NCBI GenBank assembly: GCA_029882215.1
Contig: JAOULC010000030.1
Location: 1-38,081, forward strand
DNA length: 38,081 nt
Origin: Gammaproteobacteria bacterium
Lineage (GTDB): Bacteria > Pseudomonadota > Gammaproteobacteria > SZUA-229
Reading direction: 5' to 3'
Shown here: positions 4,598 to 21,852 of the stretch, piece after piece
Layout of the letters: the number at the start of each line of letters is the position of its first letter
Position numbering within the stretch: position 1 is the first letter of the stretch
Notes under the pieces: generated by a model
The model's database searches: none
The model's input: the letters and a program-made list of their open reading frames with translations, nothing else
What the model was told of the DNA's origin: nothing
Program-made: the position numbers and the translations under genes

Positions 4598-6880
4598 ATG
4601 AAAAGTAACAAACTCAATATCCTGAAGACGATTATTCAGGATGTTAATGACGCATCCGGGCTTGAACAGGCCCTGAATATAACGGTACAACGCATCAAGC
4701 AGATCATGCATGTGGACGCCGTGTCAGTGTACTTTCGTGATACTAAGGCCGAACAGTTAGTTTTGATGGCAACTGATGGCCTGAATCCGAAGGCGATCGG
4801 AAAAATAAGATTTAACTTTGATCAGGGGCTGGTTGGACTGGTTTATAAACAGGCTGAACCGGTTAATATTAAAGATGCTCATAGTCATGTAAATTATTGT
4901 TTTATTAGTGAGACGGACGAAGTCTCTTTCCATGGTTTTCTAGGTGTTCCACTGATTCAACACCGTCATGTGCTTGGTGTTCTGGTCGTGCGTCAGACAA
5001 AACAACGGCGCTTTTCCCCTGACGATGAAACCTTTCTGGTCACGCTGGCTGCACAACTGGCCGGCGCCATTTCTCACGCAGAGAAAATGGGTGAATTAAC
5101 CCGTCTGTTTGACGGTGTAGAGGGTCACTCATTTAATATGAAAGGCCTGGCAGGCTCACCGGGTATTGCCATTGCTGAGGCAATGGTAGTCTTTCCGCCA
5201 GCCAGTCTGCAGTCAGTGCCAGATAGCCGTATCAGTGAGAACGAGGTCGATGAGCAGATCAGTTCATTTAGACAGGCCGTTAGCAATGTAGAAAATGAAT
5301 TTAAAGAGCTCTCCCGTCGCATGCAAGGCAGCATTACCGCCGGAGAGCTGGCTTTGTTTGATGTGTTTGGATTAATGCTCAAAAGTGATTCGTTAATCGA
5401 CACGATTATTAAGCGGATTACAGCTGGTCAGTGGGCACAGGGTGCATTACGTGAAACGATAGCAGAACACGTTAAAAAATTTGATGCCATGGAAGATGCC
5501 TATTTTCGTGAGCGAGCGGTAGATATTAAGGACCTGGGCCGGCGACTGTTAATGCATTTACAAATGCAGCAGACACAGGTTGCTGAAGTATCCGCACCGG
5601 TTGTGCTGGTTGGTGAAGAAGTTACCGTCTCGCAATTTGCCGAGGTGCCGTTACAATATCTGGCCGGTATTATTTCAACCAAAGGTTCGGCGTCTTCACA
5701 TGTTTCTATACTGGCTCATGCCTTAAATATTCCGTCAGTCATGGGCATTGATGATTTACCCGTGCAGCGCATTAAGGGCCAGAAAATAATCATTGATGGT
5801 TATAGCGGGCAGATTTATGTCAAGCCCTCACAGGCAGTTCTGGATGAATTTAATCAGCTGATACAGGCAGAAAAACAGCTGGATGAAGAACTGGTGAAGC
5901 TGGTTGATACTGCTTCGGAAACCTTGGACGGATTACATATTCCTCTGCAGGTAAATACCGGTTTACTGGAGGATATTTCGCCTTCTTTGAAAAGTGGTGC
6001 TGAAGGGGTTGGCTTGTACCGCACCGAAATACCGTTTCTGATGCGTGACGGTTTTCCCGGTGAAGATGAACAGTCAGCTATTTACCGGCAAGTATTGAAA
6101 AGTTTTTCCCCGCGCCCGGTAACATTCCGCACACTCGATATAGGCGGCGATAAATCCCTGCCGTACTTTCCCGTTGTCGAAGAAAATCCTTTTCTGGGAT
6201 GGCGCGGTATCCGCATTATGCTCGATCACCCGGAAATATTTTTAACACAGATCAGAGCCATCCTAAAATCCAATGTGTATGAAAATAATTTGCGTCTGAT
6301 GTTACCGATGATCAGTGATGTTAGTGAAGTGGATGATGCACTGCTGTTAATAAAAAAAGCCCATAAGGAGTTAATCAGTGAAGGCATGGCTGTGCCGTAT
6401 CCACAGATAGGTGTCATGATTGAGGTACCATCGGCTGTTTATCAAATGGATGCACTGGCAAGGCGGGTTGATTTCTTTTCTGTGGGAAGTAATGATTTAA
6501 CACAATATCTTCTGGCAGTAGACCGAAATAATAAACAGGTTGCTGGTCTTTATAATTGTCTGCACCCGTCTGTTTTGCACTCAGTACAGCATATAGTGAG
6601 AGTGGCTCACCGTCATAAAAAAACGGTCAGTGTGTGCGGTGAAATGGCCGGCGACCCGGCATCGGCATTGGCCTTAATCGGTATGGGCGTTGATAGCTTA
6701 AGTATGAGTGTCGGCAGTTTGCTGCGGGTTAAACGGGTGGTGCGTGCATTTACCTCCGCACAGCTTGAGTCCTTATTGAAAGAAGCGTTGAAAATGGAAA
6801 ACGTGAAGGATATTCGTTGTTTGCTAAACACCGCACTGGAAAATGCCGGTCTTGGTGGTTTAGTGAGAGCCGGTAATTAA
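4598..6880 (+). CDS. ptsP: Phosphoenolpyruvate-protein phosphotransferase, nitrogen PTS enzyme I (EI-Ntr)
   Basis: 760 residues, the usual PtsP length. It transfers phosphate from PEP to NPr (PtsO) at the head of the regulatory nitrogen PTS in the cytoplasm. An N-terminal GAF sensor domain (about 15-160, including GLVGLVYKQAEPVNIKDA) is followed by the enzyme I region from about 175 (GSPGIAIAEAMV). The phospho-histidine is His368 in SASSHVSILAHAL. The PEP-binding TIM barrel carries GGDKSLPYFP, the NPFLGWRGIR loop and VGSNDLTQYLLAVDRN. The active-site Cys680 is in VCGEMAGDP. All key residues are present. In many relatives ptsP follows rppH (nudH); here it does not, and the gene stands alone after a terminator. 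The ribosome-binding site is weak. Confidence 0.95.
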   Translation: MKSNKLNILKTIIQDVNDASGLEQALNITVQRIKQIMHVDAVSVYFRDTKAEQLVLMATDGLNPKAIGKIRFNFDQGLVGLVYKQAEPVNIKDAHSHVNYCFISETDEVSFHGFLGVPLIQHRHVLGVLVVRQTKQRRFSPDDETFLVTLAAQLAGAISHAEKMGELTRLFDGVEGHSFNMKGLAGSPGIAIAEAMVVFPPASLQSVPDSRISENEVDEQISSFRQAVSNVENEFKELSRRMQGSITAGELALFDVFGLMLKSDSLIDTIIKRITAGQWAQGALRETIAEHVKKFDAMEDAYFRERAVDIKDLGRRLLMHLQMQQTQVAEVSAPVVLVGEEVTVSQFAEVPLQYLAGIISTKGSASSHVSILAHALNIPSVMGIDDLPVQRIKGQKIIIDGYSGQIYVKPSQAVLDEFNQLIQAEKQLDEELVKLVDTASETLDGLHIPLQVNTGLLEDISPSLKSGAEGVGLYRTEIPFLMRDGFPGEDEQSAIYRQVLKSFSPRPVTFRTLDIGGDKSLPYFPVVEENPFLGWRGIRIMLDHPEIFLTQIRAILKSNVYENNLRLMLPMISDVSEVDDALLLIKKAHKELISEGMAVPYPQIGVMIEVPSAVYQMDALARRVDFFSVGSNDLTQYLLAVDRNNKQVAGLYNCLHPSVLHSVQHIVRVAHRHKKTVSVCGEMAGDPASALALIGMGVDSLSMSVGSLLRVKRVVRAFTSAQLESLLKEALKMENVKDIRCLLNTALENAGLGGLVRAGN

Positions 6881-6956: not shown

Positions 6957-7568
6957 TTACAATATTAATTTAAGTTGTTCCCATACTGTCTGCAGAATCA
7001 CTGGCTGGGCATCTTTTGACGGATGAAGTCCGTCTGCCTGCATTAATTCGCTGTTAGTGCCAACGCCCTCTAATAAAAAGGGCACGAGACTGAGTTTGTA
7101 TTCCTTAGCTAAATTAACATAAGTGTTGTTAAAGACGGTGGTGTAGCGCTTGCCGTAATTGGGCGGTATTTTCATGCCGGCTAATAATACTCTGGCGTCC
7201 GACTGCAGACATAACTCAACCATCTGGCGTAAGTTGTTTTGCATTGCTTTTAGTGATAAACCACGCAGACCATCATTGGCGCCCAGTTCAATAATCACGA
7301 TATCTGGTCTATATTTATTTAACAGAGAGGGCAGTCGTTTAACGCCATTAATGGTAGTATCACCACTGATACTGGCATTGATAACCTGATGTGGCTGCTT
7401 TTTTTGTGCAACTTTTAATGCCAGTAAACTGACCCAGCCTGACTGCGGGTCAATGCCATATGCTGCACTGAGACTGTCACCAACAACGAGAATGGTGGCT
7501 GATTTTTTGCCGGCAAAGCTTAGCGGACTACTCAACAATAACGTGATAAATAATAAAGAGCGAATCAT
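6957..7568 (-). CDS. tesA: Periplasmic GDSL esterase/lysophospholipase (TesA)
   Basis: 203 residues from the ATG at 7568, preceded by AGAAGGGA. A longer in-frame ORF extends upstream into ybbA and is discarded because this start has both the ribosome-binding site and the signal peptide (MIRSLLFITLLLSSPLSFAG). The mature protein is SGNH/GDSL: block I GDSLSAAYGI with the nucleophile Ser, block II Gly in ASISGDTT, block III GANDG, block V DGLHPS with the catalytic Asp and His. The family member in E. coli is a multifunctional thioesterase, protease I and lysophospholipase L1. Divergent from ybbA, with the two start codons overlapping by two bases (CATG). Confidence 0.93.
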   Translation of the reverse strand: MIRSLLFITLLLSSPLSFAGKKSATILVVGDSLSAAYGIDPQSGWVSLLALKVAQKKQPHQVINASISGDTTINGVKRLPSLLNKYRPDIVIIELGANDGLRGLSLKAMQNNLRQMVELCLQSDARVLLAGMKIPPNYGKRYTTVFNNTYVNLAKEYKLSLVPFLLEGVGTNSELMQADGLHPSKDAQPVILQTVWEQLKLIL

Positions 7569-8262
7569 GCAAATCCCTTCTGAAATGGTTATATCTGTCA
7601 ACAACCTGACTAAACAGGTGCCGGCGCTGGACAGTTCCAGCGGTACTATGCTGGATATCCTGAAGGGAGTTAACCTTGAAATCAAGCCTGCTGAAACAAT
7701 TGCTATCGTAGGGGCATCGGGGTCCGGCAAATCAACCCTGCTGGGTTTGCTTGCAGGTCTGGATCAGGCCAGCAGTGGAGAGGTGATTCTGGCTGGACAA
7801 TCGCTTAATAAAATGGATGAAGATGGCCGTGCTGCCTTGCGCGGCGAGAAAGTCGGTTTTGTGTTTCAGTCATTTCAGTTACTTGCCGGTCTGACGGCAT
7901 TAGAAAATGTAATGTTACCGCTTGAACTGCAATCCAAATCTTCGGCCAGAGACGATGCGGTTGCATTGTTAACACGGGTGGGTCTGGCTGAACGTTTACA
8001 GCATTATCCAAAGCAGCTATCCGGAGGTGAGCAGCAAAGAGTTGCCATCGCCAGAGCATTTGTCACCGCCCCGACCATTCTTTTTGCGGATGAGCCAACC
8101 GGAAATCTTGATAAAGTCACCAGCAAAAATATTATCGATTTGTTATTTGAAATGAACCGCGAAAAAAAAACCACACTGGTGATTGTTACCCATGATGAAA
8201 ATCTGGCGCAGAAGTGTGAGCGTTGTTTACTACTTGAAAACGGTGTTTTAAACAATGACTAA
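7567..8262 (+). CDS. ybbA: ABC transporter ATP-binding protein, YbbA type
   Basis: 231 residues. Walker A is GASGSGKST, the Q-loop is in VFQSFQLL, the signature is LSGGEQQRVAIARAF, Walker B is ILFADEPTGNLD, and the switch His is in IVTHD. The ADEPTGNLD form is typical of the MacB/LolD/FtsE-like group that pairs with FtsX-type permeases. The start ATG at 7567 is preceded by AAAGAG inside the tesA coding sequence. The gene overlaps ybbP by 8 bases, so the two are co-translated. The order tesA / ybbA-ybbP is the one known in E. coli; substrate unproven, with lipid or lipoprotein handling the usual suggestion. Confidence 0.93.
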   Translation: MQIPSEMVISVNNLTKQVPALDSSSGTMLDILKGVNLEIKPAETIAIVGASGSGKSTLLGLLAGLDQASSGEVILAGQSLNKMDEDGRAALRGEKVGFVFQSFQLLAGLTALENVMLPLELQSKSSARDDAVALLTRVGLAERLQHYPKQLSGGEQQRVAIARAFVTAPTILFADEPTGNLDKVTSKNIIDLLFEMNREKKTTLVIVTHDENLAQKCERCLLLENGVLNND

Positions 8263-10747
8263 ACACTTCCTGCTTGCTGCGCGTTTATTAGTCAGAGACT
8301 GGCGCGCCGGTGAACTAAAAGTTTTATTACTGGCCTTGCTGATTGCGGTTGCCAGTGTGACTTCAACTGGACTGTTTACACAGCGTATTAACCGCGGAAT
8401 GAACGATCAGGCCGGTCAGTTTTTAGGTGCGGATTTATTATTAAAGAGTCCGCAGCTGACGGATCAGTCAGTTATCAATTACGCGCAGAGAGCCGGTCTC
8501 GGTATCACCAAGAGCATCAGCTTCTCCAGCGTGATTGTGGCGCACGATGAATTTCAGCTCACACATATCAAGGCCGTTGACCAGCATTATCCGTTATTGA
8601 GTCAGATAAAAATATCCGCGCAGCTATACGGTGATGAACGCCCGGTTAATTACGGACCGGCTGCCGGTGAAGTCTGGCTTGCGCCGCGGCTGTTTAGTTT
8701 ATTGAATTTAAAAATCGGCGATAAAATTGAATTAGGTGAAACCGAATTGCAGGTCGCAGCTGTTTTAAAACACGATCCGGGGCAGGCCAGTAGTTTTGTC
8801 ACGATCGCGCCACACCTGCTAATGAATATTCAGGATGTGGCCAAAACAGCGGTGATTCAGCCGGGCAGCCGGGTAACCTATTTAACCGGTTTTGCCGGCG
8901 AATTAAAGGCAAGAAAACAATTTGAGAAGTGGCTGGCACCAAGGCTTTCAGGCAGCCAGAGATTGGTCGGTGGTACTGAAGGCTCACAGGCCGTTAACTC
9001 GGCAATGGATAAAGCCGGGCAATATTTATCACTGGCGTCGATGCTGAGTGTAATGCTATCGGGTATTGCGATTGCAATGACGGCTAATCGTTACGGTCAG
9101 CGACATTTTGATCAGGCTGCACTGATGCGATGTATGGGGGCATCGCAAAAAACCATTATCCGGATCTTTAGTATGCAGCTATTTATATTAGGAGTCATCG
9201 GCAGTTTGCTGGGCTGTCTGGCGGGATACCTTACGCAGCAAGGGCTGATGATCCTACTCAAAGACCTGCTGGTGACTGAGTTACCCGGCGCCGGTGTTTA
9301 TCCGTTAATCAGCGGTTTTGTTGCCGGTTTTGTGACCTTAAGCGGCTTTAGTCTGCCGGCGTTGTTAAGACTCAAATCGGTATCGCCTTTGAGAGTGTTG
9401 CGTAATGATATTGCACCGTTAACGATTAGCTCATGGTTTGTTTACGGGCTGGCTGTCTGCAGTATGGTAGTACTGATGTGGTGGCAGTCAGGCCAGCTGA
9501 AATTAACACTGCTGGTACTAGCCGGTGTAATGGTCAGTGTTACCATGCTGTTTATTTTATCTCTATTGCTGATTTATCTTAGCCGGCTGATATTACCAGG
9601 GTTGAGCGGGCCATGGAAAACAGGCTTGCTACAAATTGTAAGAAACCAGAAAAGCAATCAGTTACAGATGCTGGCATTTGGTTTGTCACTAATGATACTG
9701 ATGATTATTTTTTTAATAAGAACCGATTTAATTCATCGCTGGCAGGACCAGCTGCCGGATAAAGCGCCTAACCATTTTGTCATTAATATTCAGAACGATG
9801 AAGTAAAAGCGGTACAGCAGTTTTTTGCCGAGCACGGCATTGCAACAGAAGGTTTGTATCCGATGGTTCGTGGCCGGATTGTTAAAATTAATAATAAAGA
9901 TATACTGGATGTGGCGGAAGATAAAACAAAACTGGATGAGTCGCTCAAACGCGAGCTTAATCTTTCATGGTCAAAACAGATACAGGCCAATAATAAGTTA
10001 CTTGAAGGGCAGTGGTGGAGTGCAGCGGATGACGGTAAGGCCGTTATTTCAATTGAAAAAGGACTGGCCAGGCGCTTGCAGGTAGATATAGGTGATGATC
10101 TGGCTTTCCGTATTGCCGACCAGCATATTTCAGCGACGATAAAAAGTATTCGTTCGGTGCAGTGGGATTCATTTCAGCCGAATTTTTATATTATTTTTCC
10201 TGAAAATGTTATTAATGAATTTCCGCTCAGCTATATCAGCAGTTTTTATCTGGAACCTGCAAAAAAGAAAACACTGAATCAGTTGATAAAGAATTTTCCA
10301 ACGCTAACCGTGCTTGAAATTGATGTGATTATGCAGCAGGTTAAGTCCATTATGTCGCAGGTCACTACGGCTGTTGAATACGTTATGTTATTTGTACTGT
10401 TTGCCGGCATGATGGTGCTGGTTGCTGCCATGCAATCAGGCATGGACGAACGCATGAATGCAGCCGTTGTGATGAGAACGCTAGGCGCGAAAAAGGCTTT
10501 TCTAAGGCGCAGTCAGTTTGCTGAATTTAGTTTGCTGGGGTTGTTTGCCGGTGTGCTGGCGGTATCCGGCACGGAAATTATTGCCTATCTGCTTTACAGC
10601 AAAGTGTTTGAATTATATTTTGAACTGCATCTGTCATTATGGATTTACGGGCCGTTATTATCAGTATGTCTGATCCTGATAATCAGCGGTTTTTATATGA
10701 ACAAAGTGATAAAACAGTCACCGGTAAAAGCCCTGAGGTATGCTTAA
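8255..10747 (+). CDS. ybbP: FtsX-like ABC transporter permease, YbbP type
   Basis: 830 residues, near the usual length for YbbP. An N-terminal membrane helix (VLLLALLIAVASVTSTGLFT, about residues 24-43) is followed by a large periplasmic domain. A cluster of membrane helices spans about 255-470, starting SLASMLSVMLSGIAIAMT and continuing with the FtsX-typical AALMRCMGAS loop. A second periplasmic domain (about 500-690) precedes the final FtsX domain, containing VMLFVLFAGMMVLVAAMQSG, VVMRTLGAKKAFLRRSQFAE and the ending SPVKALRYA. The duplicated FtsX layout with ALMR(C)MGA and VMRTLGA motifs marks this permease type. Coupled to ybbA. Confidence 0.92.
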   Translation: MTKHFLLAARLLVRDWRAGELKVLLLALLIAVASVTSTGLFTQRINRGMNDQAGQFLGADLLLKSPQLTDQSVINYAQRAGLGITKSISFSSVIVAHDEFQLTHIKAVDQHYPLLSQIKISAQLYGDERPVNYGPAAGEVWLAPRLFSLLNLKIGDKIELGETELQVAAVLKHDPGQASSFVTIAPHLLMNIQDVAKTAVIQPGSRVTYLTGFAGELKARKQFEKWLAPRLSGSQRLVGGTEGSQAVNSAMDKAGQYLSLASMLSVMLSGIAIAMTANRYGQRHFDQAALMRCMGASQKTIIRIFSMQLFILGVIGSLLGCLAGYLTQQGLMILLKDLLVTELPGAGVYPLISGFVAGFVTLSGFSLPALLRLKSVSPLRVLRNDIAPLTISSWFVYGLAVCSMVVLMWWQSGQLKLTLLVLAGVMVSVTMLFILSLLLIYLSRLILPGLSGPWKTGLLQIVRNQKSNQLQMLAFGLSLMILMIIFLIRTDLIHRWQDQLPDKAPNHFVINIQNDEVKAVQQFFAEHGIATEGLYPMVRGRIVKINNKDILDVAEDKTKLDESLKRELNLSWSKQIQANNKLLEGQWWSAADDGKAVISIEKGLARRLQVDIGDDLAFRIADQHISATIKSIRSVQWDSFQPNFYIIFPENVINEFPLSYISSFYLEPAKKKTLNQLIKNFPTLTVLEIDVIMQQVKSIMSQVTTAVEYVMLFVLFAGMMVLVAAMQSGMDERMNAAVVMRTLGAKKAFLRRSQFAEFSLLGLFAGVLAVSGTEIIAYLLYSKVFELYFELHLSLWIYGPLLSVCLILIISGFYMNKVIKQSPVKALRYA

Positions 10748-10782
10748 AGTATTTCAAATGAGGCTAAAAGGAGTGCGCTGAT

Positions 10783-11265
10783 TTGAAAGAGATAGCTGAA
10801 GTTTTACTGCTGATACTGGTAGCCAATGGCTCGCCAGTTATCGTGAGTTTTTTATTTTCGCACAGATTGTCTTTGCCTGTTGATTTTGGTTTGAAACTAA
10901 AAGATCAGCAGTATTTATTTGGTAAAACTAAAACCTGGCGCGGATTAATCATGTCGCTTGCTCTGACAGCGTCAGTTTCTGTGCTGCTCGATGGTGAGTA
11001 TTATATTGGTCTGCTTATTTCGCTGCTGGCAATGACTGGTGATTTGTTTTCAAGCTTTATTAAACGGCGGTTAAAAAAAGCTTCCAGCTCAGAAATGCTG
11101 TTACTTGATCAGCTGCCTGAATCCGTGTTGCCTGCTGTCATGATGATGTCAGTCATTCCGCTGAACTTGACACAGGTCATAGCAATCGTCATTGCGTTTT
11201 ATATTATTGAACGTATGGTGTCAAAAATGCTGTTTAAGATTGGCATTAGGAAACGCCCCTACTAG
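10783..11265 (+). CDS. CarS-like (CDP-archaeol synthase / CdsA-related) membrane protein
   Basis: 160 residues starting at TTG (10783), justified by AAAAGGAG nine bases upstream; no ATG is suitably placed. About five hydrophobic helices. The sequence carries family features of CarS/DUF46: an early VANGSPVIVSF, then LPVDFGLKLKDQ and LFGKTKTWRG, the LLAMTGDLFSSFIKRRLK loop and LLLDQLPES. CarS and CdsA load CTP onto phosphatidic-acid-like lipids to give CDP-activated lipids in the inner membrane. Ten bases separate it from a CDP-alcohol phosphatidyltransferase, the enzyme class that uses such products. The true substrate is unknown; in a bacterium it is probably a diacylglycerol lipid, not archaeol. 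Confidence 0.78.
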   Translation: MKEIAEVLLLILVANGSPVIVSFLFSHRLSLPVDFGLKLKDQQYLFGKTKTWRGLIMSLALTASVSVLLDGEYYIGLLISLLAMTGDLFSSFIKRRLKKASSSEMLLLDQLPESVLPAVMMMSVIPLNLTQVIAIVIAFYIIERMVSKMLFKIGIRKRPY

Positions 11266-11275
11266 GTATTATCCA

Positions 11276-11845
11276 ATGATCAATAAAAAAGATTTTTTTA
11301 ATCCGCCTAACATTGTCAGTATAGTACGGGTATTTATGGCGCCTGTGTTATTGTTGCTGGCCTATCATCACAGCGTGACAGCCTATTTTATCGTTCTGGT
11401 TTTTACATTGTTTACGGATGTGCTTGATGGTTTTCTGGCCCGGCATTTAAACATGATCACAGAGCTGGGTTCACATCTGGACAGCTGGGGTGATTTTATT
11501 ATCTACACAACACTGGCTATTTCTGCCTGGTGGATGTGGCCGGATATGATACAGGAAGAAATGTTATATGTTGTGCTGATCATACTAAGCTTTGTTGTAC
11601 CGGTCATCGTTGGTTTGATAAAGTTTCGTACACTCACCAGCTATCATACCTGGTCGGTTAAACTGGCGGTGTTTCTTACATTAATATCCTACATTGCTGT
11701 TTTCACCGGCTGGTTGCGCTGGCCCATTTATATGGCAGCGGCTGTTTCCGTCATTGCTGCCATTGAAGAAGTAGCAATAACGCTGATAATGAAGCATGAG
11801 CATGCCGATGTCAGATCATTTATACATGCGTTACATTATAAATAA
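11276..11845 (+). CDS. CDP-alcohol phosphatidyltransferase family protein
   Basis: 189 residues from the ATG at 11276; the open frame extends further upstream but that part overlaps the carS-like gene. The class signature Asp-Gly-x2-Ala-Arg-x8-Gly-x3-Asp-x3-Asp is perfect: DGFLAR, then Gly eight residues on, then Asp and Asp in GSHLDSWGDF. Six hydrophobic helices. The N-terminal NPPNIVSIVRVFMAPVLLLL is typical. The enzyme joins a CDP-lipid to an alcohol acceptor (glycerol-3-phosphate, serine, inositol phosphate or similar), displacing CMP. The neighbouring CarS-like gene makes a two-gene lipid-head-group module likely; the acceptor cannot be inferred. Confidence 0.88.
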   Translation: MINKKDFFNPPNIVSIVRVFMAPVLLLLAYHHSVTAYFIVLVFTLFTDVLDGFLARHLNMITELGSHLDSWGDFIIYTTLAISAWWMWPDMIQEEMLYVVLIILSFVVPVIVGLIKFRTLTSYHTWSVKLAVFLTLISYIAVFTGWLRWPIYMAAAVSVIAAIEEVAITLIMKHEHADVRSFIHALHYK

Positions 11846-19990: not shown

Positions 19991-20278
19991 ATGACAACTA
20001 CTGAAATAATAAAACTGTTATCCATTCGTTTAAAGATCAGTCAGGCGGAAGCGCGCCGCTGTTTAATGCAGGAACTTGATATTATTGCCACTCATATGAG
20101 TGGAGATTCTCAGGTAACCTTACGCCGCTTCGGCGTGTTTGGCGTCAAACTGACGGCGGCTCGTAAAACCTACCTTCCGGGCGAGAAAAAATATTACTTA
20201 ATACCCGCTCGCCGTGTTGCATTTTTTCGCGCCTCAGAACGGCTGAAAGAATTTGTTAAGAGCTGGAAACCTGAATGA
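19991..20278 (+). CDS. Divergent HU/IHF-like DNA-binding protein
   Basis: 95 residues, HU size. The two N-terminal helices (TTEIIKLLSIRLKISQAEAR, then CLMQELDIIATHM) and the beta turn VTLRRFGVFGVKLTAARKTY match the HU/IHF fold (family: GxGxF or FGxF turn after the second helix), and the C-terminal helix ASERLKEFVKSW is present. The DNA-intercalating arm normally reading Arg-Asn-Pro-x-Thr-Gly is replaced by KTYLPGEKKYYLIPARRV, so minor-groove kinking is doubtful. Its stop overlaps the next start in an ATGA, so it is translationally coupled to an HU-like membrane protein and may form heterodimers with it. This is inference from fold and context. Confidence 0.82.
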   Translation: MTTTEIIKLLSIRLKISQAEARRCLMQELDIIATHMSGDSQVTLRRFGVFGVKLTAARKTYLPGEKKYYLIPARRVAFFRASERLKEFVKSWKPE

Positions 20279-21852
20279 AACGGTTATATGACAAAGCGTT
20301 GATGGAACAGATTGCCAAAATCTATGGCAATGAAGTGACGTTTTTGTCTGAGTTCTCTAATGCATTACTGGATATTATTCGTGAAGGTCTGATTCGCGAT
20401 GGTCAGGTCAGATTACATCAGTTTGGTACCTTTAAACTGAAGTGGATGAAATCACGCAGTGGTATCAATCCTTCAACGGGTGAAAAAATAATGATACAGG
20501 CCCGGCCACGGGTGCTGTTTATTCCGGCAAAACATCTAAAAGAAAAAATTGAACCCCATCCGCCAGCACTGCAGTCACTGGATCAGGCTGAGGATGCCGT
20601 AAGTGCAGATGAAACGGTTAGTTTAAAAAATAATTTGCAACTGAAAAGCGGCACTAATGTAACGCCGGTAAAAGCAGATGAATCTGTGTTAGTTAGTAAC
20701 TCTGTCTTATCCGCACAGCGAGAAAATGATCAGCCGCTAAACGGTGAGTCGTTATCTGAACCTGAGAAAGTAATCAGCGATATCCAGGATGAAATTAAAG
20801 TGCTGGAACAGGTTGTCAGTATTCTGAAAGAGGAAGCTGACGGTGTTGTTGATAGCACTGCTAAACAAAGGGCTGAAAAAACAAACTGGCTTGATCAGTC
20901 GGTAGTTGAAAAAATACAGGAAATCTCTGAATTACAATATTTCAGGAAGGATAGCGAACTGAATAATAGCGCAGAGCCGGCAAAAAATAGCACGGAGCCA
21001 GCTGCAACTGTAATGCTCGATATTGATACAGATACTTATTCAGAAAAAACAACCGATGATAGTCTGTCTGTTAAAAAATCGTCAGCAAAACCGTGGTTTG
21101 CAGTTGCGGCGGCCGTGCTTTTGTTACTGGCCAGTGCAGTGTTATTTAATGCCATGAAGACAGATAAGCCTGCAGAGGTTGTGCAGCAGAACTCACAGGC
21201 CTCCGTGGCACCGATGACTCCGAATTATTTATATTCGTATGAAAATGAATTGTCGGTGACTAAGTCGCCAGTCACAGCACCGGTGCATGTGCCGGTGAAA
21301 ATCATTATGGATAATACTGAGTTAGCCTCACTCTCAATTGATACCAAAAATGATCTGCCCGATCAGCAGGCAGCAGATGATTTGCTAGCAGATAAACAAC
21401 CAGCGGATAGTATTGTTGTTTCGAGCGAAGCCTACGATGAATTAAAGCGTGCCAGTGCCGAACAGAGTGTCTTTTTCCCGGCCATGGAACATAAACTGAT
21501 GAACGGCGACAGTCTCTGGCGGCTTGCCAGTAAGCATTATGTGAACCCGTTTTACTGGCCGCATATTTATCAGGCCAACCATAGTAAAATAGATAATCCC
21601 GATAAAGTAAAAATTGGCAGAGTCATTAATCTGCCAACACTGTATGGCAGTCCCGATGATCTGACTCAGCAGGACAAGCACAATATTGCCGTCGGCTATT
21701 ATTATAATTACCTGTACCACAAGGGCAAAGGTAATCCCTTTGCGTACTTTTCTTTGATTGGTGTTGAAAAATTCGATCCGACCTTGCTGATTGAATACAA
21801 AGATGAGATTGAACGGGCAGACGTTAATAATCTTGCATTATTAACTATCTAA
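20275..21852 (+). CDS. HU-like DNA-binding domain / transmembrane helix / LysM fusion
   Basis: 525 residues with an unusual layout. Residues 1-95 form an HU/IHF domain (KALMEQIAKIYGNEVTFLSE, then VRLHQFGTFKLK) that keeps the DNA-arm motif GINPSTGEKI and the RPRVLFIPAKHLKE ending. A long, polar, low-complexity linker (about 96-270) contains a short coiled coil. A single membrane helix lies at about 274-293 (WFAVAAAVLLLLASAVLF), preceded by Lys residues, giving an inside-to-outside orientation. A second linker precedes a LysM domain at about 404-453 (NGDSLWRLASKHYVNPFYWP, then HIYQANHSKIDNP), then about 70 residues of tail. LysM binds peptidoglycan, so the protein could tie DNA in the cytoplasm to the cell wall. 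Coupled to the small HU-like gene and convergent with a ParA gene 14 bases away. Confidence 0.85.
   Translation: MKRLYDKALMEQIAKIYGNEVTFLSEFSNALLDIIREGLIRDGQVRLHQFGTFKLKWMKSRSGINPSTGEKIMIQARPRVLFIPAKHLKEKIEPHPPALQSLDQAEDAVSADETVSLKNNLQLKSGTNVTPVKADESVLVSNSVLSAQRENDQPLNGESLSEPEKVISDIQDEIKVLEQVVSILKEEADGVVDSTAKQRAEKTNWLDQSVVEKIQEISELQYFRKDSELNNSAEPAKNSTEPAATVMLDIDTDTYSEKTTDDSLSVKKSSAKPWFAVAAAVLLLLASAVLFNAMKTDKPAEVVQQNSQASVAPMTPNYLYSYENELSVTKSPVTAPVHVPVKIIMDNTELASLSIDTKNDLPDQQAADDLLADKQPADSIVVSSEAYDELKRASAEQSVFFPAMEHKLMNGDSLWRLASKHYVNPFYWPHIYQANHSKIDNPDKVKIGRVINLPTLYGSPDDLTQQDKHNIAVGYYYNYLYHKGKGNPFAYFSLIGVEKFDPTLLIEYKDEIERADVNNLALLTI

What the first reader, a model, noticed from the sequence alone, without database searches (positions are those of the whole stretch)
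10783..11845. Two-gene CDP-lipid module: CarS-like synthase and CDP-alcohol phosphatidyltransferase
A CarS/DUF46-like cytidylyltransferase (TTG start, strong ribosome-binding site) is followed ten bases later by an enzyme with a perfect CDP-alcohol phosphotransferase motif. CarS is known for archaeal lipid synthesis; its bacterial relatives are poorly characterised. The pair could make an unusual phospholipid or glycolipid anchor in addition to the housekeeping PssA/PgsA products.
Basis: partly seen in the sequence, partly recalled or inferred. Interest (0 to 1): 0.52.

Follow-up and report, generated by a model that had tools for sequence, protein, structure and literature searches.

The report
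Bacterial CarS-like and phospholipid-transferase gene pair
A gammaproteobacterium carries, besides its normal membrane-lipid genes, a conserved two-gene unit resembling the last steps of archaeal phospholipid synthesis, which probably makes an extra phospholipid whose identity is not yet known.

Summary
The pair is real. ORF1 (10783-11265, TTG, 160 aa) is a CarS-like cytidylyltransferase (PF01864; AlphaFold model matches A. pernix CarS at Z 17.7, CdsA at 7.2). ORF2 (ATG 11276-11845, 189 aa) is a CDP-alcohol phosphotransferase with a perfect signature. The genome has separate CdsA, two PgsA and PssA, so the pair is extra. It lacks GGGP synthase, so archaeal ether lipid is very unlikely.

The CarS-like clade carries DQxPE where archaeal CarS has DQLD, and is widespread in bacteria. 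Two layouts occur. Layout A (the window's) is CarS plus this transferase subfamily, usually beside a YbhP-like phosphatase. Layout B is CarS beside, and three times fused to, a calcineurin-like phosphoesterase. In 80 named loci, 29 of 38 transferase-linked CarS have the YbhP-like gene within 1 kb and none the metallophosphoesterase; 31 of 42 others have the metallophosphoesterase and none the YbhP-like gene that near.

Best reading: a dedicated side branch in which the CarS-like enzyme makes a CDP-lipid (probably CDP-diacylglycerol) and the transferase adds a polar group, much as E. coli ynbAB may. The product is unknown; a PG/cardiolipin-type lipid is my first guess. New variant of a known kind.

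The parts
10769..10773 (+). AGGAG ribosome-binding site of ORF1
   Evidence: sequence
10783..11265 (+). CarS-like cytidylyltransferase, 160 aa, TTG start
11038..11121 (+). active-site stretch G86-D87 ... S91-F92-x-K94-R95-R96 ... D109-Q-x-P112-E113 of the CarS-like protein
   Evidence: G86, D87, S91, F92, K94-R96, D109, P112 and E113 in 36 of 36 aligned rows; E113 sits on the Asp of archaeal DQLD in the profile alignment to 5guf
11276..11845 (+). CDP-alcohol phosphotransferase, 189 aa, ATG start
   Evidence: PF01066 71.4 bits; model Z 15.4 to the PgsA structure 7drj
11417..11494 (+). CDP-alcohol phosphotransferase signature D48..D51-G52..A55-R56...G65...D69...D73
   Evidence: invariant in 38 of 38 rows
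11621..11662 (+). subfamily-specific acceptor-side residues K116 ... Y123-H124-T125-W126 ... K129
   Evidence: K116, Y123, H124, T125 in 38 of 38; W126 in 37; K129 in 36 of 38, Arg in the other 2
8255..10747 (+). YbbP-like permease, 35 bases upstream of the pair
   Evidence: 35% identical to E. coli YbbP over 823 aa; same order in G001 and G003 of the genus
7453..8262 (+). YbbA-like ATPase (the match to YbbA begins at residue 41, so the start is probably further in)
   Evidence: 58% identical to E. coli YbbA
6957..7730 (-). TesA-like GDSL lipase/thioesterase, divergent from ybbA (the match to TesA begins at residue 58, so the start is probably further in)
   Evidence: 42% identical to E. coli TesA, PF13472
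23512..24264 (-). YbhP-like endonuclease/exonuclease/phosphatase; relatives adjoin the pair in other genomes, here 12 kb away
   Evidence: 42% identical to E. coli YbhP; 442 bits to the partner profile

Best explanation
The two genes form a dedicated CDP-lipid side branch. Step 1: the CarS-like enzyme, embedded in the inner membrane, transfers CMP from CTP to a lipid phosphate and releases pyrophosphate; the most likely substrate is phosphatidic acid or a close ester-lipid analogue, as the genome has no visible route to archaeal lipid phosphates. Step 2: the neighbouring CDP-alcohol phosphotransferase takes the CDP-lipid and moves its phosphatidyl part onto a polar alcohol, releasing CMP. A YbhP-like phosphatase, next door in most relatives and 12 kb away here, probably acts on the product or on the head-group precursor. 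My first guess for the product is an anionic phospholipid of the phosphatidylglycerol/cardiolipin kind, made besides the housekeeping CdsA-PgsA-PssA pathway. Shown: fold families, signature residues, genetic linkage, existence of the housekeeping enzymes. Inferred: both reactions. Guess: donor and acceptor identity.
For: Fold and family: the CarS-like model matches ApCarS (5guf) at Z 17.7, 1.9 A over 143 residues, and TmCdsA at Z 7.2; the transferase matches PgsA 7drj at Z 15.4, 2.6 A over 159 residues, and inositol-phosphate synthases at 11-13. Linkage: 38 of 80 named relatives of the CarS-like protein have the transferase downstream on the same strand, 34 of them within 300 bp. Co-occurrence in 274 genomes of the class: transferase subfamily 21, CarS-like 44, both 10, expected 3.4, p 4e-4; transferase with YbhP-like 13 of 21, expected 2.8, p 4e-8. 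Tree: transferase-linked versus metallophosphoesterase-linked CarS needs only two changes, with the four methanotroph CarS-YbhP-transferase loci inside the other group (98-starred group of 48 rows), so the pairing probably arose twice. Displacement: in G026 the transferase adjoins a YnbB/CdsA-like protein (156 bits to YnbB) instead of CarS, and E. coli ynbA-ynbB is the same pairing. A fusion of a CDP-alcohol transferase with a CarS domain exists in G262, though of other subfamilies. Extra to housekeeping. The YbhP-like gene also adjoins ClsB-type cardiolipin synthase in E. coli, and a YbhP-like gene adjoins a ClsB-like gene in three Nitrosomonas loci, which points to PG/cardiolipin chemistry. 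Own genome has no PLD-type protein (PF13091).
Against: 11 of 21 genomes with the transferase subfamily have no CarS-like gene, so the transferase does not need it. 34 of 44 CarS-like genomes lack the transferase; most pair with a metallophosphoesterase, so a transferase partner is not the rule. Only 5 of 44 CarS-like genomes in the even sample have the two near each other (G000, G135, G156, G144, G032). The product guess has a result against it: 20 of 21 transferase genomes do have a PLD-family protein, strong ones (E <= 1e-18) 13 of 21 against 156 of 253 in the others, so no replacement is seen (my count of its rows). No residue pattern identifies the acceptor. No activity data exist.
Confidence: 0.55

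Rival explanations
1. The transferase is a CDP-diacylglycerol-dependent cardiolipin synthase (CLS_cap type): CDP-DAG plus phosphatidylglycerol gives cardiolipin, and the CarS-like enzyme feeds it CDP-DAG locally. (This is a special case of the best explanation.)
For: Own genome has no PF13091 protein at all. NCBIfam CAP-type ClsA is among the best weak hits (37.5 bits). The YbhP-like partner adjoins ClsB in E. coli and Nitrosomonas. CLS_cap occurs in diverse proteobacteria (PMC3378450, passages).
Against: No anticorrelation with PLD proteins in 274 genomes. Score far below the ClsA cut-off of 240. PMC4634129 (passages) states that CDP-alcohol transferases with lipid acceptors typically have extra membrane helices, which this 189-aa protein lacks; that statement concerns eukaryotic PE/PC synthases.
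Confidence: 0.25
2. The pair makes a pyrophosphate-linked glycolipid anchor of the MPIase type (sugar-phosphate plus CDP-DAG), as proposed for the E. coli CdsA paralogue YnbB.
For: E. coli ynbAB is the same pairing of a CDP-alcohol transferase and a cytidylyltransferase; YnbB overproduction raises MPIase (PMC6362211, passages). A YnbB-like gene replaces CarS beside the transferase in G026.
Against: YnbA itself is only marginally similar to ORF2 (34 bits, 37 residues). The paper ascribes GlcNAc-PP-DAG formation to CdsA/YnbB themselves, not YnbA. The YbhP-like partner is unexplained.
Confidence: 0.15
3. The CarS-like clade is an archaeal-type CDP-archaeol synthase and the pair makes isoprenoid ether phospholipid.
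For: Best PDB match is CDP-archaeol synthase.
Against: No GGGP synthase (PF01884) in a genome estimated 98% complete. Archaeal equivalog NF003114 scores 81.9 against a cut-off of 148. DQxPE instead of DQLD.
Confidence: 0.03
4. The CarS-like protein does not serve the transferase: its main role is one shared with the metallophosphoesterase found beside it in most bacteria (a CDP-lipid turnover or lipid-phosphate salvage couple), and the window pairing is a minor secondary arrangement.
For: 33 of 44 CarS-like genomes also have the metallophosphoesterase, 27 of those 33 within 500 bp, p 7e-28 for co-occurrence; three CarS-metallophosphoesterase fusions.
Against: The window genome has no metallophosphoesterase of this family. 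Transferase-linked and metallophosphoesterase-linked CarS are mutually exclusive in the 80 loci, though G144 has CarS, transferase and metallophosphoesterase together. The pairing with the transferase persists while other neighbours change.
Confidence: 0.17

Closest known systems
Archaeal CDP-archaeol synthase CarS (PF01864; PDB 5guf)
   Same: Fold over nearly the whole chain (Z 17.7, 143 residues), GD...SFxKRR...DQ motif
   Different: DQxPE instead of DQLD (E113 lies where the second Asp lies); below the archaeal equivalog cut-off; no GGGP synthase in the genome
Bacterial CdsA and its paralogue YnbB
   Same: Same superfamily and presumed reaction (CTP plus lipid phosphate)
   Different: PF01148 below cut-off; structure Z only 7.2; the genome has its own CdsA at C127
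E. coli ynbAB
   Same: A CDP-alcohol transferase gene next to a cytidylyltransferase gene, besides housekeeping copies
   Different: YnbB is CdsA-like, not CarS-like; YnbA and ORF2 are only marginally similar
PgsA, phosphatidylglycerophosphate synthase (PDB 7drj)
   Same: Closest solved fold of ORF2 (Z 15.4), same signature
   Different: Outside the PgsA group in the tree; TIGR00560 34.9 bits against cut-off 109; the genome has two real PgsA (165 bits each to E. coli PgsA)
E. coli ybhP-clsB operon
   Same: YbhP-like phosphatase beside a phosphatidyl-transferring enzyme
   Different: ClsB is a phospholipase-D-type enzyme; ORF2 is a CDP-alcohol transferase

Membership tests
CarS-like family PF01864 | score over the curated cut-off | tested here: met
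   58.4 bits, cut-off 22
CarS-like family PF01864 | CarS fold | tested here: met
   5guf Z 17.7, rmsd 1.9, 143 aligned
Archaeal CDP-archaeol synthase (NF003114 equivalog) | score over the equivalog cut-off | tested here: not met
   81.9 bits, cut-off 148
Archaeal CDP-archaeol synthase (NF003114 equivalog) | DQLD motif (as in 5guf) | tested here: not met
   D109-Q-x-P112-E113; D109, P112, E113 in 36 of 36 rows, Q110 in 33
Archaeal CDP-archaeol synthase (NF003114 equivalog) | GGGP synthase in the genome to supply the substrate route | tested here: not met
   PF01884: 0 matches in G000; all four archaeal controls rang
Archaeal CDP-archaeol synthase (NF003114 equivalog) | activity on unsaturated archaetidic acid | not testable with these tools
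   needs enzyme assay
CdsA (PF01148) | score over the curated cut-off | tested here: not met
   18 bits, cut-off 24
CDP-alcohol phosphotransferases (PF01066) | signature D-x2-DG-x2-AR-x8-G-x3-D-x3-D | tested here: met
   complete; invariant in 38 of 38 rows
CDP-alcohol phosphotransferases (PF01066) | score over the curated cut-off and fold | tested here: met
   71.4 bits, cut-off 22; 7drj Z 15.4
PgsA | equivalog score | tested here: not met
   TIGR00560 34.9 bits, cut-off 109
PgsA | clusters with known PgsA | tested here: not met
   PgsA rows form another group (95 starred); ORF2 subfamily apart (quick tree)
Phosphatidylinositol-phosphate synthase | Arg after the last signature Asp (R94 of M. 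tuberculosis PgsA1) | tested here: not met
   F74 in ORF2; F in 34, V in 2, I in 2 of 38 rows; role of R94 from PMC6506517 passages
CAP-type cardiolipin synthase ClsA (NF053678) | equivalog score | tested here: not met
   37.5 bits, cut-off 240
CAP-type cardiolipin synthase ClsA (NF053678) | makes cardiolipin from CDP-DAG and PG | not testable with these tools
   needs assay
ynbAB-like module | CDP-alcohol transferase gene adjacent to a cytidylyltransferase gene | tested here: met
ynbAB-like module | cytidylyltransferase homologous to YnbB over its length | tested here: not met
   24 bits over 48 residues

The most novel reading that the evidence does not exclude
Bacterial CarS-like proteins with the DQxPE motif are a separate, widespread lipid-activating family that makes a CDP-lipid other than CDP-diacylglycerol. 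It runs in two mostly exclusive modules: with a CDP-alcohol transferase and a YbhP-like phosphatase (window type), or with, and sometimes fused to, a calcineurin-like phosphoesterase. The window pair would then make a bacterial membrane lipid not yet described.
Probability: 0.25. Interest if true: 0.72.

Novelty: new variant of a known kind. Interest (0 to 1): 0.5.

Why it matters
Reviews describe bacteria as activating phospholipid precursors with CdsA and archaea with CarS (PMC9385802, passages). Here a CarS-fold enzyme coexists with CdsA, tied to specific partner genes, and relatives are spread over several bacterial groups. If active, it gives bacteria a second, separately addressed CDP-lipid pool, and its substrate bears on how the CarS/CdsA split and the lipid divide arose. 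Named strains such as Nitrosomonas marina Nm22 and Marinobacter oulmenensis DSM 22359 carry the CarS-like gene, so the question can be tested.

Tried and rejected
Archaeal ether-lipid route: rejected, no GGGP synthase. ORF1 as CdsA and ORF2 as PgsA: rejected. ORF2 as replacement for PLD-type cardiolipin synthase: suggested by the absence of PF13091 in the own genome, but not borne out in 274 genomes. Apparent CarS fusion in L024 (412-aa frame): judged a spurious long frame in GC-rich DNA; the extra part overlaps a YbhP-like gene on the other strand. The 73 of 274 PF01864 hits overcount: hits in frames of about 270-300 aa are CdsA cross-matches; the profile A4 separates the clade (103 bits and more, 44 genomes; next 30 bits).

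Placement of YnbA in the transferase tree is not used: end branch 8.3. Families not listed in the VIA-align tables are not thereby excluded. The share of the DQxPE motif among the 80 named loci is biased, since the scan used that motif as one of its patterns, and A4 was drawn from those loci and the window; the 18-row alignment A1, made before the scan, also has D109, Q110, P112 and E113 invariant, but was itself chosen by similarity to the window protein. Reading Li et al. 2016 on ClsB failed, not held; what I use on ClsB is from a review passage.

Full report
WHAT IS THERE. ORF1 spans 10783-11265 (+, TTG, 160 aa) with AGGAG nine bases upstream; ORF2 starts at ATG 11276, ten bases after the ORF1 stop, and ends at 11845 (189 aa). 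ORF1 is CarS-like (PF01864 58.4 bits, cut-off 22; PF01148 18, cut-off 24) and ORF2 a CDP-alcohol phosphotransferase (PF01066 71.4 bits). No NCBIfam equivalog cut-off is reached: ORF1 81.9 of 148 for the archaeal synthase; ORF2 37.7 for archaetidylinositol-phosphate synthase (cut-off 180), 37.5 for CAP-type ClsA (240), 34.9 for PgsA (109).

STRUCTURE. AlphaFold models from alignments of the search for related loci relatives: ORF1 pLDDT 94.5, ORF2 87.0. ORF1 matches ApCarS 5guf at Z 17.7 (1.9 A, 143 residues) and TmCdsA at Z 7.2. ORF2 matches PgsA 7drj at Z 15.4 (2.6 A, 159 residues), then inositol-phosphate synthases at 11-13 and PS synthase at 11.7. In the profile alignment E113 of the clade's DQxPE motif lies on the second Asp of archaeal DQLD, so an acidic residue is kept but shifted by an inserted position; D109, P112 and E113 are in 36 of 36 rows. 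On the acceptor side ORF2 has Phe (34 of 38 rows) where inositol-phosphate enzymes have Arg94, and invariant K116, Y123, H124, T125 (Arg94 from PMC6506517, passages and one section). This speaks against inositol phosphate as acceptor but does not name one.

GENOME. The window is contig C86 of a 3.4-Mb genome, 98% complete, 4.6% contamination. Elsewhere it has one CdsA (175 bits) and three CDP-alcohol transferases: two PgsA, 165 bits each to E. coli PgsA and 81% identical to each other, and one 266-aa protein (L004) that I name PssA from its length; that name rests on recall and was not tested by an equivalog search. There is one CarS-like gene, no GGGP synthase and no PF13091 protein. Hence the pair is additional and no archaeal ether-lipid route is visible.

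RELATIVES. In the window's family 17 of 24 searched genomes have the CarS-like gene, and in 15 of the 17 the transferase is next to it, though other neighbours change. In the genus (G001, G003) and the window the pair follows ybbA-ybbP with divergent tesA; the window proteins are 58%, 35% and 42% identical to E. coli YbbA, YbbP, TesA. E. coli YbbAP-TesA has been described as a lipid hydrolase complex that extracts hydrophobic compounds from the inner membrane (PMC12646458, abstract). This linkage is genus-level only.

TWO LAYOUTS. 38 of 80 have the transferase downstream on the same strand, 34 within 300 bp, four further off with the YbhP-like gene between. Of these 38, 29 have the YbhP-like phosphatase (EEP) within 1 kb and 0 the metallophosphoesterase (MPE). 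Of the other 42, 31 have the MPE within 1 kb and 0 the EEP; 3 have an EEP further off. Some loci end at contig ends, so misses are upper bounds. On the CarS tree, transferase-linked against MPE-linked needs two changes; four methanotroph loci of the first kind lie inside the group that holds all MPE-linked rows (98 starred, quick tree). So the pairing with the transferase probably arose twice; the root is unsure.

CO-OCCURRENCE. In 274 genomes of the class, by profile scores: transferase subfamily 21 (138 bits and more; next 58), CarS-like 44 (103; next 30), EEP 36 (215 bits and more; my cut, weaker ones trail off from 150), MPE 38 (293; next 129). CarS with transferase 10 (expected 3.4, p 4e-4); transferase with EEP 13 of 21 (expected 2.8, p 4e-8); CarS with MPE 33 (expected 6.1, p 7e-28), 27 of the 33 within 500 bp; CarS with EEP 7 (expected 5.8, p 0.35); transferase with MPE 6 (expected 2.9, p 0.05). 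These p-values take genomes as independent, which they are not quite. In three genomes CarS and MPE are one protein (G255, G158; G270). Against the reading: 11 of 21 transferase genomes have no CarS, and 34 of 44 CarS genomes no transferase. In G144 CarS, transferase and MPE lie together, so the two layouts are not strictly exclusive.

DISPLACEMENT. In G026 the transferase adjoins a YnbB/CdsA-like protein (156 bits to YnbB). E. coli ynbA-ynbB is the same pairing. In G262 a 400-aa protein joins a CDP-alcohol transferase domain and a CarS domain, both of other subfamilies (18% identity of that protein to ORF2; 25.5 bits to the CarS profile). These support that a CarS-fold enzyme can feed a CDP-alcohol transferase.

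MECHANISM. From established chemistry of the two families, the CarS-like enzyme would make a CDP-lipid and the transferase would exchange CMP for an alcohol. The YbhP-like partner keeps the residues that I recall as catalytic in its family (N12, E45, D172, N174, D240, H241 among the invariant columns). YbhP adjoins ClsB in E. coli, and a YbhP-like gene adjoins a ClsB-like gene in three Nitrosomonas loci; this is my main reason to guess a PG/cardiolipin-type product. The test of that guess by anticorrelation with PLD proteins failed: 20 of 21 transferase genomes have one.

LITERATURE. Searches of the CC-licensed PMC library (listings) showed no paper on these bacterial CarS-like proteins; PMC7852524 (passages) reports CarS as not detected in Cloacimonetes. 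AfCarS prefers unsaturated archaetidic acid and does not replace E. coli cdsA (PMC9385802, passages). YnbB raises MPIase but cannot replace CdsA (PMC6362211, passages).

VERDICT. A real, conserved module; a new variant of a known kind; product open.

Noticed in passing
L072 4716-15415 (G262:C34, about 77.7-88.4 kb): Gene cluster in another gammaproteobacterium-class genome: NADPH-type HMG-CoA reductase fused to an APH-like kinase, a CDP-alcohol transferase (best like archaetidylserine synthase, 75.7 bits) fused to a CarS domain that has archaeal-type DQLD, a formyltransferase, a hydrolase-ligase like olefin beta-lactone synthetase, a UbiA prenyltransferase and a PEP-synthase-like protein. It looks like an isoprenoid-lipid pathway and deserves its own look.
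   Followed up: partly
L191 460-1938 +, L192 412-1878 -, L193 523-1935 -: CarS-like domain fused to a calcineurin-like phosphoesterase in one protein of 470-492 aa in three genomes; elsewhere the two genes lie side by side. No literature search was made for this couple by itself.
   Followed up: partly
G000 whole genome: No PF13091 (phospholipase-D-type) protein at all in a 98% complete genome, so no PLD-type cardiolipin synthase is visible; 233 of 274 class genomes have a match.
   Followed up: yes
L002 1498-2055 + and L003 1447-2034 - (G000 C90 and C24): Two PgsA copies 81% identical in the own genome; one could be a contaminant contig (4.6% contamination).
   Followed up: no
window 20275-21849 +: 525-aa protein with an N-terminal HU-type DNA-binding domain and a LysM domain, next to a 95-aa ORF at 19991-20278 that looks HU-like by eye; an odd pairing.
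   Followed up: no
window 4598-6880 +: GAF plus PEP-utilising domains: a nitrogen-type phosphotransferase enzyme I by domain order (name recalled).
   Followed up: no
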